A DNA stretch of 64,000 nucleotides from assembly GCA_030919125.1 (NCBI GenBank), contig CP121470.1, positions 744,001 to 808,000 of the forward strand, written 5' to 3'. Of this stretch, positions 51,408 through 58,544 are shown piece by piece. Below the pieces are notes generated by a model. The model was not told where the DNA came from, did no database searches, and saw only the letters and a list, made by a program, of their open reading frames with translations. The translations under genes were made by a program, and so were the position numbers. This DNA comes from Methanoregula sp. SKADARSKE-2. GTDB lineage: Archaea; Halobacteriota; Methanomicrobia; Methanomicrobiales; Methanospirillaceae. Within the stretch, counting starts at the first letter, position 1. Each line of letters begins with the position of its first letter.

Positions 51408-52572
51408 ATGCCCAAATACCGGCAAATTGCCCGTCGAACTCAGGAGACGTTGAGTGCAGAAGAATGTTCCGAAATTGCAGTTGCAGCACTCAATCGGAAT
51501 CTCACCATTTCTATCAATGGAACACTAAAACAAAAAACGATTATTCAGGCTTTGGTTGGGATGTCAGCGAACAAACACTCCGTGCATTCAGTCGATAAAG
51601 TTCTCGAGAAGATCCCTTGTGAAACATCGGTCAGATACCATTTATCCAAAATAGATCTTGATTCACTTCAGGAAATACAATCGAAGATTCTCACGTATTC
51701 TCAAAATACTATTCTCGTCCCGGGAAAACCGTTCCATTTTGCCATAGATTTCACCAACGATCCTTATTATGGCGAGATCGTCAACGCGAATGAAAACTAT
51801 GTCATAAAATGTAAGATGAAAGATTCGACGACGAAATTCTATTCGTACGTCTCCCTTTATATCGTCACAAAAGGTTAACGGCTGACTCTCGCAGTTTTCC
51901 CTACGAAAAAAGGAGTACCGAACGTTGAGTACCTTCGAAGATTTCTGAAGATCATCGCTGACATGAAAGGTGAAAATTACCGTTCTCTGTCTTGATAGGG
52001 ATTTTTATTCAAAAGATGTCTTTACATTTCTCCAGAATGAGGATGTTCCGCACATCGTTCCGGTGAGAAAACACGGCGAGGAACTTAAGAAAATCCTAAC
52101 CGGTAACCATTCCCGTTACGACCGGTATACAATGAGAGGGAATGGGACCGGTGAACCAGTTGAGCTTACCTTGGCGATCGATGTTCAATATCATCGGGGC
52201 AGAAATAAAAAACACGGGAATGTGAATCTCGGTTACGTTGTTCACGGTATCGACTGGAATCTCCGGAAGGTCTACTCGATCTACAAGAACAGATTCGCTA
52301 TCGAGTCCTCGTACCATATGCGGAATATTGTCAAAGCTAAGACCTCATCCAGAAACGTGGTGCTAAGGTACCTCTTGACAATTATCTCGTTTCTTCTCAA
52401 GAATATCTGGGTGGCCCTGAAAGGGAATTACTCCGCCAGGATCCAACGAGGGCCAAGAACCATCGACGATGATTTGTTCCGATTCGATTGCTTCCGGATC
52501 TTTGTCTGGGAAGGGATCAAGAAAAAACTCAGGCCCATCACTTCTGTGGCGGTTCTCCGAAGTTTGGGTTGA
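51408..52572 (+). pseudogene. ISH3-like transposase with a stop and a frameshift
   Basis: The first frame begins MPKYRQIARRTQETLSAEEC and contains FHFAIDFTNDPYYG with a catalytic-type Asp pair. A TAA at 51876-51878 interrupts it (YIVTKG, stop, then RLTLAVFPTKKGVPNVEYL). Near 51968 a frame change leads to VLCLDRDFYSKDVF, the RYDRYTMRGNG region, YKNRFAIESSYHMRN and the C-terminus at 52572. These blocks match ISH3-type transposases. A fragment of the same gene occurs at 61080-61295. Confidence 0.72.
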
Positions 52573-54125: not shown

Positions 54126-54138
54126 GTCCTATTTACTA

Positions 54139-54540
54139 GGACTTACGCGTTTGAAGGCAGATTCGAGCAAGAAATATTCATCACAGCACTACAAAAATAA
54201 TCAGATTAGAACGCCGTGGAAGCGATAAAGAGAGAATAGGTTGATTCCCTGAACTACCCGATGATAGCGCCCTCGTGTGGTGAGGCTGGCTGCCTCTCTA
54301 ACAAACGCTTGACGGAAGCGTGAGCTATTGATACTGGTTCAGCGGGAAAACACCGGGATGCCTCTGTACACGAGCAAACCTGATACGTCGATATCAGAAA
54401 GTTTGCAAAATTGCCGCTCGTGCATTTCGGAGGATTCACTCTCGTTCGATCTCCATCCCGGGTTTGTCTAACCCATGGATGGGCGCTACTAACTCTTAGA
54501 TCTTTCGGTCCAAACCAAGTGCGTAAGTCCTATTTACTTA
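54139..54540 (-). mobile_element. Internally deleted element A (402 bp, MITE-like)
   Basis: The same perfect ends GGACTTACGC/GCGTAAGTCC and the same outer sequences as 11567-12618 are present. About 96 bp of the left end are joined to a short middle block (TTGATTCCCTGAACTACCCG, 54239-54262, also at 12208) and to the right end from about 54267. The transposase is thus missing except for its N-terminal 55 codons (start GTG at 54439). Flanks are TATTTACTA and TATTTACTTA, so a target duplication of seven or eight bases is visible. Such derivatives can move only with a transposase supplied in trans. Confidence 0.8.
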
Positions 54541-54563
54541 AGGTGAGAGTGAAAAAGAGGCGA

Positions 54564-54814
54564 TTAGTATTTAGGACTTTCATTAAGTTTGTCGATATTT
54601 TCTCCGTGCGTGGAAAGAAGACTGACTATTGATGACAAGGATCGGGATATATTGTAAAGAAGATATCCAATTACGGACAGCACAAAGATTTCTACAACCT
54701 GATAATTCAGAACATACGAAGTAAAATCATAATTCAAAAAAAAGAAAGAATAACTAGCAATAAACTTATGCCAATGCATGCAGCCATACCAAACCACCAA
54801 CAAATCAATTTCAT
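54564..54814 (-). CDS. Small two-helix membrane protein, possibly frameshifted
   Basis: From ATG 54814 (behind GGTGA) the frame reads a hydrophobic helix MKLICWWFGMAACIG and on to LLLVILSFF, then a stop in a run of eight T. Shifting one frame in that run continues into NYQVVEIFVLSVIGYLLYNI (second helix) and a hydrophilic tail ending LNESPKY at 54564. Either a single frame-broken membrane protein of about 83 residues or a 26-residue peptide. It lies 21 bases after the 259-residue gene, on the same strand, in the low-GC cluster. Confidence 0.45.
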
Positions 54815-54835
54815 AGTGTCACCAGACTCTTCATA

Positions 54836-55615
54836 TTAAGGTACAACATCAATTTCTACCTGTGAATCCGCGCTCCCTTTTTCGCTACCTTTTTCAAACA
54901 CATGGTGACCGATTGCGACCCAATGCCCACCAAAGTACCCACCATCATCTTTTTTATATTGAAGATCAGCCAACCACGTGTTTGTTGACGTCTTTGACTG
55001 CTCATATTTTTGAGTCTCTCCTTGCGATACGGTTCCACTTACACTTATTTTATCGATTGGGTAACTCGATGAATCTGTCTTGAGTGTGGATTTAGAAGTA
55101 AAATCAACAGTTATTGGTGTCATAAAGGGTATCTTATTTACAGTTATCTTCGTTTTTCCAACCCATTCGTGGGCCTCAACACCCACAGATTTAGGAGGGT
55201 TTTTTGTCGTATAACCTCCTATTTTTCGAATGCTTTCAGCTATCAATACGCTTGGGTTCGTCAATGGTTTAGTGATAAGAGCACAAGTATCCCCTGTAAA
55301 ATTTAATGTTCCTTTCCATCGACCATCGGTGTCTGATCTTACTGAAAAAACAGTTTGAGTGATCGATTCTGGAATACTTGGATAACTTAAGTAGACATTC
55401 TCGTTCATTTTTACTTCGACACTGCATGAATTGTCAGAATTACAGATCCCAGTTAATAGTGAGAAGTTGGATTCGGGATTCGAGCGTTGCAAATGGTAGT
55501 TATGTACGCTCAAAATTTCATTCTCTATTGTTACTTGATTTGAATGTATTGTGACGGTGTCTTGATCCGTGCTCTCAACGAAAGACAAGGAGGGAAGAAA
55601 ATGGGTCATAGTCAT
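54836..55615 (-). CDS. Hypothetical low-GC protein, 259 residues
   Basis: No family recognised. It starts MTMTHFLPSLSFVESTDQD, contains many short beta-strand-like stretches (VYLSYPSIPESITQTVFSV, KTKITVNKIPFMTPITVDF) and ends with GGYFGGHWVAIGHHVFEKGS-like and DSQVEIDVVP. There is no signal peptide in this frame. Its ATGA start overlaps the stop of the preceding secreted-protein gene, so it may be the C-terminal part of a once longer protein or a coupled partner. GC is visibly lower than in the neighbouring chromosome, a sign of recent acquisition. Confidence 0.65.
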   Translation of the reverse strand: MTMTHFLPSLSFVESTDQDTVTIHSNQVTIENEILSVHNYHLQRSNPESNFSLLTGICNSDNSCSVEVKMNENVYLSYPSIPESITQTVFSVRSDTDGRWKGTLNFTGDTCALITKPLTNPSVLIAESIRKIGGYTTKNPPKSVGVEAHEWVGKTKITVNKIPFMTPITVDFTSKSTLKTDSSSYPIDKISVSGTVSQGETQKYEQSKTSTNTWLADLQYKKDDGGYFGGHWVAIGHHVFEKGSEKGSADSQVEIDVVP

Positions 55616-56855
55616 CGGAACTCCATCACCTTGGGGGGCGTAAAGATTTCCGCTTCCTGGTCATCCGCCCGGTATTGCGGCTGTCCGCTGGAATCATAGA
55701 CGATGGTTGTGGGGACAGCACCGTTCATGACGTGTTCGATGGTTCCACCCCATGGAACACTGTTGTTGGCGTTCGTTGCGGTGACCGTCGTACCTGGTGG
55801 CACCGGGCTGAGCGGCCCCGTCACCACAACCTCCGGTACCGGCTCATTTGATCCCGTTGGATATATCGTTCCAACCTTGTCGTTGCCCTGCCCAACCCCC
55901 GTCAGGCTCACGGGAATCGTGTAAACGGTCGTGACATTGGCAATGAACGTCCCGGTCACGTTCGCGACATCCCATTGGGGAGTGAAGTCCCCGGAAATAC
56001 TGCAGGTGTCTATCACAGAGCAGGTCGTAGGGGCACCGGTATAGACCAGCCCATCGCCCGATGGCTCCTGCCCCCAGATCCTGGGTGTTATGGAAAAGGT
56101 TGGGAGTTGTTGGGTTGCAGTAGCGATGGCGGAGTAGTGGAGCACGGCGTTGGTGCTGGTAAGGTTGGCGAGAGCTGTCAACACCACTTTTGTACCCGGG
56201 TCGTTGCCCCAGGTTCCGGTGGTGATGACAAAGGAGACGGGCTGGTTTGGGTCGTCCCCCGCTTTATCGACAATAATGGAGCGAGAGTCGGCGGGGTTGT
56301 TTGAGCCGAGGATACCGAGTGTGCTGACCCATTCGGTATAGGAGAGTTGTTTGATGGAGGAGAGGACGGGGATGGAGCTGTTTGCGGCTGAAAGCGGGAG
56401 CGGGTCGGTCAGATCGTGGGTTTGTTAGACCCGGCACCGGCGCTGCAGTTGGCACCGAAACAGACGGCGTATGACGGTGATGAGTAGCCACTACCCGGCG
56501 AGAGCACCGAGCGGTTTTCACGGACGACTGCTTCAACAGGGGAAGTGACTGCGTGCGGGTCAGTGTCCTCCGACACCGCCGCGGGTATCTTCAGGGACGC
56601 AACTGCTGCGTCTTCTTCGGCTGACGACGATAGGCCGGGATCTGCGCTACTCAGGTTGGTTACTGCCGGGTCATCCGCTCGCTGTTCTGATGCCGTCGGC
56701 TGCATGCTGTCCGGAGGAGATGCAGGTGCGGCGATTTGCGTGTCGTTGTCGCAATCGGTCGTATCAGATGCTGATATGGGGGATATGGCTGCAATCGCTA
56801 TGATCCCGATCAGGAGATACACGGCGAGTTTCAGAGAGGGGGATATCCGTGTCAT
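55612..56855 (-). pseudogene. Exported protein of unknown family, split by a frameshift
   Basis: From ATG 56855, MTRISPSLKLAVYLLIGIIAI followed by AAISPISAS is a signal peptide; a low-complexity Ser/Ala/Asp-rich part follows to SNKPTI and a stop at 56409. In the next frame the protein goes on without break: DLTDPLPLSAANSSIPVLSSIKQ, WVSTLGILGSNNPADSRSII, FVITTGTWGNDPGTKVVLTALANL and repeated V/T-rich beta strands to PPKVMEFR at 55612. One frame change near 56410-56425 would restore about 414 residues. The beta-rich, Pro/Thr-rich composition suggests a surface or secreted protein. Confidence 0.6.
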
Positions 56856-56951
56856 AGTTTGGTTCCCAGAGATGCGATGAGTTAAATATTTTTGCACGGA
56901 TATTGCCGGATCTTGCTCTGGAGAAACGTGCATGAACTCAAAACAGTTCAC

Positions 56952-57425
56952 ACCGGAATCATGAAAATCAAAGGTAAAGTACCACTCCAGCCCCTAACTA
57001 TTTTCTAACAACGATACGATTCCGCCTCTTAATTCTATCAGAATCACTTCGGGGGTCGTACTTCCAGACACATTCAGCGAGGTAGAACGGCAGTTGAGAT
57101 CTCGTCATTCCTCCTTTCGGAGCGAGTTTTCTTTTAAGAGATCAGGAGAATCCCTCAAGACCATTGAGGTGATCTCCACCGCCATCGCTCTCCTGTTTCA
57201 CCCGTATTTCACATACCCGGCGTCTTTCAAACCCGGTTCGTCCACCAATTGAATCTGAACTCTGTTCCATCAGGAATACCTGATGATCCTTTCCCCTCAT
57301 CACTCGACAGGCTCAAACGGCAGCGGGAGAGTACGAGGTCATATTTACCTTGAACAGCGCCCCTTCCCGCGGCTCATTTTGTATAAGAAAATTCTGAAAA
57401 ATCACCTTGTAACCCAAGGACGATT
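56952..57425. other. Gene-free stretch before truncated IS5 copy
   Basis: About 470 bases with no coding evidence on either strand. The last about 70 bases (from ATTTTGTATAAG at 57377) precede the transposase start and probably contain the left end of the truncated IS5-type element. Confidence 0.4.
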
Positions 57426-57748
57426 ATGGAAAATCTGGTTGATTCTGCGCTAGAGAAGCGGTGTGAGAGTATCAAACAACTCGGCGATCGGCTCGAGGGA
57501 TTTCCGACATTAATCGATTGGGAGAGGTTTCTGACGGTAGTGGGAGATCTGTATCGAAACCAGACCGAAGAGGGAGGTCGACCGAATATTGATACCGTTC
57601 TCATGGTTAAGATGCTGGTACTCCAGTCGGTGTACACCCTGTCCGATCCTGAACTTGAGCGACAGGTCAATGATCGCATATCGTTCATGAAATTCCTAGG
57701 GTATCCTAACAAGGTCCCGGATCAAACCACCATCTGGCATTTCCGGGA
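57426..57748 (+). pseudogene. IS5-family transposase, N-terminal fragment
   Basis: 107 codons (MENLVDSALEKRCESIKQL to TTIWHFRE) match the intact transposase at 12643-13611 with about 15 changes. At 57749 the match stops abruptly and the sequence passes into the 3' flank of larC, so the rest of the element was deleted together with adjacent DNA. Confidence 0.85.
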
Positions 57749-57779
57749 GCTACGTTGCATGATTAGAGTTCAGGGCAGC

Positions 57780-58544
57780 TCATCGGTCTTTTATCTCCCC
57801 AATCATTGCGCAAAGGCAGTTAGCCAGCCCGAACTCCCGTTTTCCGAAGCCATATCCGGACTTCTGCACCTGCATGCACGGCCTCGGGATAAAACCGGAG
57901 CAGAAATATTTCAGGAGCGCCGCCCCGGTTGGCGTGCAGAGTTCGCCTTGGACTGACCCGCTGCAGGTGGGTATCCCCTGCAGGATGCGGGCGGTTGCAG
58001 GAGCCGGTACCGGAAGGATCCCATGTGCACAGCGGATTGTTCCGCACCCGACATGAACCGGGGATGCCAGCACCTGATCCAGCCCAAGTTCCTTCATCAA
58101 CATGCACACTCCGGCAATATCCGCGACTGCATCCATCATGCCGAGCTCGTGGAAATGGATCATAGTCACGGGTTTTTTATGGACATAGCTCTCTGCTTCA
58201 GCGATGATCTCGTAAACGGCACGGATATCCTCGCGGACCTCGCAGGGGAGATCCAGGTGGTCGACAATCCGCCCGATGCCCGAGTGGTCAGAATGCAGGT
58301 GATGATGAGGGTGATCTCCGTGGGTGGCCCCCCCTTCTTCTTCAGTGCCATGGATGGCGACCTGGATCTGTGTGCCGGCAACCCCGTATTTTTCCACTGC
58401 AGCGGCCCGAATGGAGACGCCCGGGATCTGCAGTCCGTTCAGTCTTTTCAGAAAATCCTCCCGATCCGGGTGCAGCTCCAGCAGGGCGGCCATGAGCATA
58501 TCACCGGAAGCACCCATGCCGCAGTCCAGGTACAGCACCTTCAT
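57780..58544 (-). CDS. larC: LarC-type nickel-insertion protein, LarC1 part only
   Basis: 254 residues starting MKVLYLDCGMGASGDMLMAALLE. It has the histidine-rich linker (GDHPHHHLHSDHSG, residues about 76-90), IHFHELGMMDAVADIAG and CTPTGAALLKYF typical of the LarC1 half (DUF111). Complete LarC proteins are about 400 residues with a C-terminal LarC2 domain; here the protein ends at CAMIGEIKDR and only about 30 bases separate its stop from the truncated transposon, so the second half is missing. LarC makes or inserts the nickel-pincer cofactor. It directly abuts larB. Confidence 0.87.
   Translation of the reverse strand: MKVLYLDCGMGASGDMLMAALLELHPDREDFLKRLNGLQIPGVSIRAAAVEKYGVAGTQIQVAIHGTEEEGGATHGDHPHHHLHSDHSGIGRIVDHLDLPCEVREDIRAVYEIIAEAESYVHKKPVTMIHFHELGMMDAVADIAGVCMLMKELGLDQVLASPVHVGCGTIRCAHGILPVPAPATARILQGIPTCSGSVQGELCTPTGAALLKYFCSGFIPRPCMQVQKSGYGFGKREFGLANCLCAMIGEIKDR

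What the first reader, a model, noticed from the sequence alone, without database searches (positions are those of the whole stretch)
54564..56855. Low-GC cluster of exported and membrane proteins of unknown family
Three coupled minus-strand units (exported Ser/Thr/Ala-rich beta protein split by one frame change, a 259-residue unknown protein overlapping it by ATGA, and a tiny two-helix protein) have lower GC than the chromosome and no family I recognise. The overlap and common low GC suggest they came in as one unit. The frame breaks (near 56415 and in a T8 run near 54737) may be real decay, phase variation at a homopolymer, or sequencing errors.
Basis: partly seen in the sequence, partly recalled or inferred. 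Interest (0 to 1): 0.6.

Follow-up and report, generated by a model that had tools for sequence, protein, structure and literature searches.

The report
Broken mosaic secreted-protein gene
What looked like three small unknown genes in a methane-producing microbe that lives inside an amoeba is mainly one broken gene for a large secreted, mix-and-match protein, whose relatives carry exchangeable tail domains next to matching partner genes.

Summary
The coordinates and frames are right, the reading is not. Frames A (56409-56855), B (55612-56424) and C (54836-55660), all minus strand, are pieces of one gene. Profiles built without the window place module m2 in frame B (1.3e-47) with its start in frame A. 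Module m1 is split across the B/C break: frame B carries profile positions 5-61, frame C 57-96. The ATGA overlap therefore lies inside a domain and is not coupling of two genes. Frame C continues with a second partial m2 and a C-terminal domain 'c' (5.4e-15). 'Common low GC' is wrong: A and B are 58-59%, C and D 34-40%, switching at 55616 inside m1. In two Methanoregula relatives the scaffold is one open gene (962 and 1204 codons), and a GC drop coincides with the start of unrelated C-termini, one of them DUF6345. Stand-alone 'c' proteins lie beside a conserved membrane-anchored partner in 11 of 11 loci. Genome length identifies the host as Candidatus Methanoregula pelomyxae, an endosymbiont of the amoeba Pelomyxa schiedti; the paralogue there is truncated beside an IS. 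Best reading: a decayed exported protein of a modular family organised like polymorphic-toxin or VARTIG systems. Toxicity is untested. ORF D has no convincing homologue.

The parts
56409..56855 (-). Frame A: signal peptide, Ser/Thr/Ala-rich linker, first residues of module m2
   Evidence: joining A's tail to B raises the m2 score from 147.9 to 155.8 bits, reached by 0 of 1000 shuffles, null maximum 155.1
56409..56424 (-). Frame break 1, inside module m2 (frames A and B overlap here)
   Evidence: m2 homology in B starts at 56412 while B's first start codon is at 56187
55612..56424 (-). Frame B: rest of m2, then first half of m1
55909..56412 (-). Module m2, profile 25-184 of 184
   Evidence: 1.3e-47, 147.9 bits, profile built without window sequence
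55526..55833 (-). Module m1, split: frame B carries profile 5-61, frame C 57-96 of 108
   Evidence: B tail 20.8 bits, C head 16.5 bits, each above all scored shuffles (maximum 11.1); joined 42.8 bits, null maximum 35.0, 0 of 1000
55612..55660 (-). Frame break 2 (frames B and C overlap here; holds a C6 run and the ATGA)
55545..55651 (.). GC change point 55616 with its support interval; 0.587 above, 0.38 below
54836..55660 (-). Frame C: end of m1, partial second m2, domain c
55229..55450 (-). Second, partial m2 (profile 5-84), diverged
   Evidence: 1.1e-8
54887..55177 (-). Domain c (profile 8-101 of 115), elsewhere found as small exported proteins
   Evidence: 5.4e-15; 3.2e-14 with a second profile
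54564..54818 (-). ORF D, two hydrophobic stretches, with the T8 run; lies where the conserved partner of c would start; identity unknown
   Evidence: no convincing homologue in 108 genomes; no match to the partner profile
51408..52572 (+). Broken ISH3-family transposase; identical copy elsewhere in the genome
52885..54125 (+). Broken IS256-family transposase; 99% identical copy elsewhere
54136..54536 (.). Internally deleted derivative of an IS of about 1.15 kb
   Evidence: segments match dispersed longer copies
57415..57750 (+). 5' fragment of an IS5-family element, about 30 similar copies in the genome

Best explanation
One gene, broken by at least two frame changes, that encoded a large exported mosaic protein: signal peptide, linker, m2, m1, partial m2, then domain c. 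It belongs to a Methanoregula family in which a conserved, GC-rich exported scaffold (RCC1-type repeats, m1, m2 in the intact relatives) is joined to different, AT-rich C-terminal domains; two of these (c and DUF6345) are of kinds that elsewhere travel with their own neighbour gene. Proposed working of the intact relatives: the scaffold carries the C-terminal domain outside the cell, where it acts (in one relative a caspase-like peptidase candidate, DUF6345), while the membrane-anchored or exported neighbour restrains or binds it. In the window the C-terminal part was most likely exchanged by recombination inside m1, at or near the second frame break, and the gene then decayed among insertion sequences in the reduced genome of an endosymbiont. 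Shown: one gene, module order, frame breaks inside modules, GC boundary, scaffold/tail boundary in two relatives, c-partner and DUF6345-neighbour linkage. Inferred: export, tail exchange, restraint by the partner, loss after adoption of intracellular life.
For: Both breaks lie inside modules and homology starts before any start codon of frames B and C. Homologues of B and C lie in single open frames of 962 and 1204 codons in two genus mates. Scaffold homology of 40.5% identity (G057 residues 112-732, G068 175-806, 9.5e-135) ends where GC drops: change points at residues 733 and 814, 0.565 to 0.433 and 0.558 to 0.411. The four C-termini (G057, G068, own paralogue, window) show no pairwise BLAST match better than E 0.21. 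Domain c plus partner: neighbours in 11 of 11 stand-alone loci; by genome 11 of 12 carriers of c have the partner against 1 of 220 others, Fisher 6.9e-17, not corrected for relatedness. DUF6345 plus neighbour: 17 of 20 loci, two of them in one ORF and one without a resolved DUF6345 ORF; His and Cys invariant in 9 of 9. Not general sequencing error: no frame break seen in 20 scanned ORFs elsewhere in the window; the window's ISH3 and IS256 agree with their best copies without frame-changing indels. Genome length 1,949,073 in one contig equals Ca. Methanoregula pelomyxae in Table 1 of PMC10579272 (passage).
Against: The A-to-m2 link rests on a short stretch: the joined score beats the shuffle maximum by only 0.7 bits. 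The window lacks the RCC1 repeats and has the modules in another order (m2-m1-m2'-c), so it is a relative, not an orthologue. Only two relatives are intact, so tail exchange rests on few cases. Among 10 DUF6345 hosts the third-position GC drop is clear in 6, flat in 3 and reversed in 1. No detectable partner of c in this genome. No function shown for c, m1 or m2. Both structure models are useless (pLDDT 32.2 and 31.0).
Confidence: 0.82

Rival explanations
1. Three separate, translationally coupled genes acquired together.
For: ATGA overlap and same strand; frame C is open for 274 codons.
Against: Homology starts before the start codons of B and C; m1 is split over the B/C break; the GC boundary cuts the unit; frame C from its ATG begins without a signal peptide by eye although its domain c sits in exported-type proteins elsewhere.
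Confidence: 0.04
2. One intact gene; the frame breaks are assembly or amplification errors.
For: The genome comes from single-cell assemblies (PMC10579272, passages); one break touches a C6 run; D's is at a T8 run.
Against: 20 scanned ORFs in the same window show no break; the paralogue is truncated beside an IS and the G067 copy is riddled with stops; the first break is not at a homopolymer longer than 3.
Confidence: 0.12
3. Phase-variable or recombination-switched gene: the C6 run or m1 recombination turns the C-terminal part on and off.
For: C6 run in the overlap of frames B and C and GC switch in the same stretch.
Against: A second break upstream without a long homopolymer would keep the gene off; no second copy of c in the genome; IS-rich surroundings and a broken paralogue favour decay.
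Confidence: 0.06
4. Single gene as above, but the family is an adhesin or host-interaction surface protein with no effector-partner logic.
For: RCC1-type repeats in the relatives; surface proteins of archaea are often mosaic (PMC8416519, passages).
Against: Consistent neighbours of c and DUF6345; peptidase-like His/Cys pair.
Confidence: 0.35

Closest known systems
VARTIG modules of Thermococcales (PMC8416519; abstract and passages read)
   Same: Large exported protein with conserved front and variable C-terminus, followed by specific membrane-protein genes; variability attributed to recombination
   Different: VARTIG is Ig-domain based and described as limited to Thermococcales; here the scaffold is RCC1-type/m1/m2, the C-termini are unrelated domains rather than variants of one Ig domain, and the window copy is broken
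Polymorphic toxin systems (as described in passages of PMC8416519 and PMC6393860)
   Same: Conserved scaffold, exchangeable C-terminal domain, cognate neighbour gene; composition shift at the junction (this last point recalled)
   Different: No known toxin domain in the window piece, no shown immunity function, no arrays of displaced tails seen
DUF6345 (PF19872) proteins with PepSY/FTP/YcdB-like neighbours
   Same: DUF6345 is the C-terminus of the closest intact relative (1.1e-29); neighbour present in 17 of 20 loci
   Different: The window gene ends in domain c instead; no DUF6345 in its genome
Small exported c-domain proteins plus membrane-anchored partner of Methanomicrobiales (no Pfam family)
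   Same: Domain c of the window gene
   Different: Elsewhere a stand-alone protein (open frames of 170-256 codons); in the window fused to m2-m1-m2' and without detectable partner

Membership tests
m1/m2 scaffold family (defined here) | Significant match to m1 and m2 profiles built without the window | tested here: met
   m2 1.3e-47 and 1.1e-8; m1 1.4e-7 in B and 8.5e-6 in C
m1/m2 scaffold family (defined here) | RCC1-type repeats upstream of m1-m2 | tested here: not met
   No RCC1 match in frames A or B; present in G057 and G068
Small exported c-domain proteins | Domain c | tested here: met
   5.4e-15, 3.2e-14
Small exported c-domain proteins | Adjacent membrane-anchored partner gene | tested here: not met
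   No partner match in the genome at E <= 1e-6; D scores nothing
Polymorphic toxin system | Conserved front with exchanged C-terminus | tested here: inconclusive
   Sharp homology and GC breaks in two relatives, four unrelated C-termini, but few cases
Polymorphic toxin system | Recognised toxin domain at the C-terminus | tested here: not met
   No Pfam match of note for the window's pieces, for c proteins or for the G068 and paralogue C-termini
Polymorphic toxin system | Cognate immunity protein | not testable with these tools
   Linked neighbours exist but protection needs an experiment
VARTIG (arCOG07710) | Ig domains of the arCOG07710 type | tested here: inconclusive
   No Ig match in Pfam for the window or for G057 and G068; arCOG profiles not available
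Insertion-sequence passenger or S-layer protein | Match to such a family, or repeated with the IS | tested here: not met
   No family match; 54537-56972 is not repeated in the genome, only flanking segments are

The most novel reading that the evidence does not exclude
Methanoregula carries an unrecognised, VARTIG-like conflict or recognition system: an exported RCC1/m1/m2 scaffold that exchanges AT-rich C-terminal cassettes (DUF6345 caspase-like peptidase, domain c, others) together with their cognate exported or membrane-tethered regulators. The endosymbiont of Pelomyxa was disarmed of it: both of its m2 genes are broken, and it has neither the partner of c nor any DUF6345.
Probability: 0.3. 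Interest if true: 0.7.

Novelty: new variant of a known kind. Interest (0 to 1): 0.42.

Why it matters
It turns three 'unknown genes' into one explained relic and yields three unnamed domains (m1, m2, c) and one unnamed gene pair (c plus partner) that recur in Methanomicrobiales. If the tails are effectors, methanogens have a domain-exchange weapon or recognition system of the VARTIG sort, and an intracellular archaeon has lost it, which would make the cost of such systems inside a host testable.

Tried and rejected
Three coupled genes: rejected by domain continuity. Joint arrival by common low GC: rejected. IS passenger: rejected, because only flanking segments repeat. D as remnant of the partner of c: position fits, no sequence support. 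D homologues: three hits between E 0.004 and 0.008 in 108 genomes, treated as chance. Viral origin: no relative in viral contigs for c or for m1-m2. Solved structures: none for c, partner, the DUF6345 set or the G068 C-terminus; weak hits for m1-m2 treated as chance. G068 C-terminus as DUF6345: not supported by profile comparison (probability 0.2), although a similar His...Cys pattern is seen by eye. AlphaFold models of B and C: mean pLDDT 32.2 and 31.0, not used, no fold search run. Orthologue comparison for error rate with 260 kb of G068 and the other fetched loci: too few shared genes, replaced by Pfam scans. Papers: DUF6345 gave none; RCC1 with Methanoregula none; caspase-like with archaea and PepSY none; polymorphic toxin with Methanomicrobiales one, PMC8416519; polymorphic toxin with archaea, methanogen and immunity six, of which I read passages of two; searches on Methanoregula with surface or secreted proteins listed nothing of use among the rows shown (12 of 283; 6 of 54). 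PMC12662959 (passages) gave background on methanogen endosymbionts. PMC6509191 is not held.

Full report
1. What is there. On the minus strand the stretch 56855-54564 holds four open frames: A (56409-56855, 148 codons, signal-peptide-like start and a Ser/Thr/Ala-rich linker), B (55612-56424, stop to stop, 270 codons), C (54836-55660, 274 codons open, 259 from ATG 55615) and D (54564-54818). The ATGA overlap of B's stop and C's ATG and the A8/T8 run at 54736-54743 are as described. The first possible start codon of frame B is at 56187, and of frame C at 55615. Neither Pfam nor NCBIfam gives a match of note for the four pieces.

2. One gene, not three. In 108 genomes of the family the B query hits a 962-codon frame in G057 (2e-41) and a 1204-codon frame in G068 (7.3e-33); the C query hits the same two frames. 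Both frames are open throughout. From these and other relatives I built three profiles without any window sequence: m1 (108 positions, 25 members), m2 (184 positions, from G057, G068 and the paralogue in the same genome) and c (115 positions, 4 small exported-type proteins). Frame B residues 5-172 are m2 positions 25-184 (1.3e-47), and residues 198-264 are m1 positions 5-61 (1.4e-7). Frame C residues 6-45 are m1 positions 58-96 (8.5e-6; the first 60 residues alone 2.7e-7), residues 71-144 are m2 positions 5-84 (1.1e-8), and residues 162-258 are c positions 8-101 (5.4e-15) (E-values for a search of one sequence). The m1 scores of the B tail (20.8 bits) and C head (16.5) exceed every scored shuffle (1832 and 1847 of 2000 each were scored, the rest falling below the reporting limit; maximum 11.1). 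Joined, B tail and C head score 42.8 bits against a maximum of 35.0 in 1000 shuffles of the C side. Joining the tail of A to B raises m2 from 147.9 to 155.8 bits, 0 of 1000 shuffles as high, but the shuffle maximum is 155.1, so the A-to-B link by sequence is modest. It is supported further by m2 homology in frame B that begins 75 codons before any start codon. The breaks therefore lie inside m2 and inside m1, and the ATGA is inside m1.

3. Composition. GC is 0.591 (A), 0.582 (B), 0.395 (C), 0.338 (D). The single best change point is 55616 (interval 55545-55651, log-likelihood gain 49.1, 0.587 to 0.38). It overlaps the stretch in which frame B hands over to frame C (55612-55660). A recombination joint inside m1 is the simplest reading; it is an inference.

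4. The family. G057 and G068 share 40.5% identity over 659 columns (G057 112-732, G068 175-806), covering RCC1-type repeats, m1 and m2; beyond that no similarity was found. GC change points, searched from residue 90 and residue 80 on, fall at residues 733 (727-764) and 814 (802-820), 0.565 to 0.433 and 0.558 to 0.411. G057 ends in DUF6345 (1.1e-29). The C-termini of G057, G068, the paralogue and the window show no pairwise match better than E 0.21. The m1-m2 query matched 47 of 232 genomes of the order; its m2 part matched only G000, G057, G067 and G068, the other matches lying in m1. A control on the composition claim is mixed: among 10 DUF6345 hosts, third-position GC falls by 0.1 or more from front to DUF6345 in 6, changes little in 3 and rises in 1.

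5. Partners. Stand-alone c proteins (open frames of 170-256 codons) are followed by a conserved membrane-anchored protein (hydrophobic N-terminus by eye) in 11 of 11 loci, one of them cut by the contig end. In 232 genomes, c occurs in 12 (11 stand-alone, plus the window) and the partner in 12; 11 have both (Fisher 6.9e-17, not corrected for relatedness). The partner has no Pfam match. The window's genome has c but no detectable partner. Among 20 DUF6345 loci, 17 carry a homologue of the G057 neighbour, in 2 of them within the same ORF and in one without a resolved DUF6345 ORF. That neighbour shows weak, below-cut-off likeness to FTP or YcdB-type domains, and the G068 neighbour to PepSY; PMC6393860 (passages) describes YpeB/double-PepSY proteins as inhibitors of protease activity. 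In 9 of 9 aligned DUF6345 domains a His of a GHG motif and a Cys are invariant, which fits a caspase-like peptidase (the clan is recalled, not tested). No solved relative was found by sequence for those C-termini that were searched: c, the DUF6345 set and G068.

6. Decay and host. The paralogue (L017 5764-7167, profile m2 from position 78 on) is cut short next to an IS copy. The G067 copy is broken by stops. The window gene lies between broken ISH3 and IS256 transposases, an internally deleted IS and an IS5 fragment, and larC next door is truncated (profile 1-235 of 375). Twenty ORFs elsewhere in the window were scanned; none shows a frame break, larC is truncated, and the TtuA-like, ThiL-like and V-ATPase I ORFs matched only parts of their families and say little. 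The window's ISH3 is identical to its copy and its IS256 differs from its best copy by 4 mismatches and one 3-base gap, which speaks against frequent indel errors. The genome has 1,949,073 bases in one contig; PMC10579272 (passages read) gives the same number for Candidatus Methanoregula pelomyxae, a cytosolic endosymbiont of Pelomyxa schiedti, assembled with SPAdes from seven single-cell libraries and closed by PCR. Loss of an exported protein in an intracellular archaeon is plausible; causation is inferred.

7. Working model. Intact relatives: scaffold exported, C-terminal domain acts outside, neighbour restrains or receives it. This resembles polymorphic toxin systems and, closer, the VARTIG modules of Thermococcales (PMC8416519, abstract and passages), where a conserved front, recombining C-terminus and linked membrane proteins were described and close counterparts in other archaea were reported not found. 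I do not file it as either: no toxin domain was found, immunity is untested, and few intact members exist.

8. ORF D. It lies about 20 bases after C, where the partner of c would begin, and has hydrophobic stretches, but it matches neither the partner profile nor anything convincing in 108 genomes. It may be a remnant or no gene at all.

Noticed in passing
window 57783-58544 and 57415-57750: larC (nickel insertion) is truncated at profile position 235 of 375, directly beside the cut IS5 fragment: a second gene damaged at this IS cluster.
   Followed up: partly
window 56973-57386: A stretch of about 414 bases upstream of the broken gene is repeated at 98% identity at 817026-817443 of the same chromosome, outside the window; nature not determined.
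   Followed up: no
window 54136-54536; also copies across the chromosome: An internally deleted (MITE-like) form of an IS of about 1.15 kb that has about a dozen longer copies in the genome; one lies next to the broken paralogue (652249-653394).
   Followed up: partly
L028-L053, for example L034 1297-2466 and L032 844-2037: m1 is widespread in exported-type proteins of Methanomicrobiales, often followed by a conserved domain without Pfam match that recalls eqolisin (G1) peptidases (from memory, untested).
   Followed up: partly
L015 6357-7235 and the end of L015 7293-10904: In G068 the downstream gene is 48% identical to the C-terminal PepSY-like end of the long protein itself, as if tail and neighbour share a regulator domain.
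   Followed up: no
L140 (G219) and L138 (G231): Copies of the c partner occur without a detected c protein beside them; their neighbours may be diverged or alternative cognate proteins.
   Followed up: no
whole genome G000: IS5-type matches number about 30 and another IS about a dozen copies in a 1.95 Mb chromosome smaller than most listed genus mates, consistent with genome reduction in an endosymbiont.
   Followed up: partly
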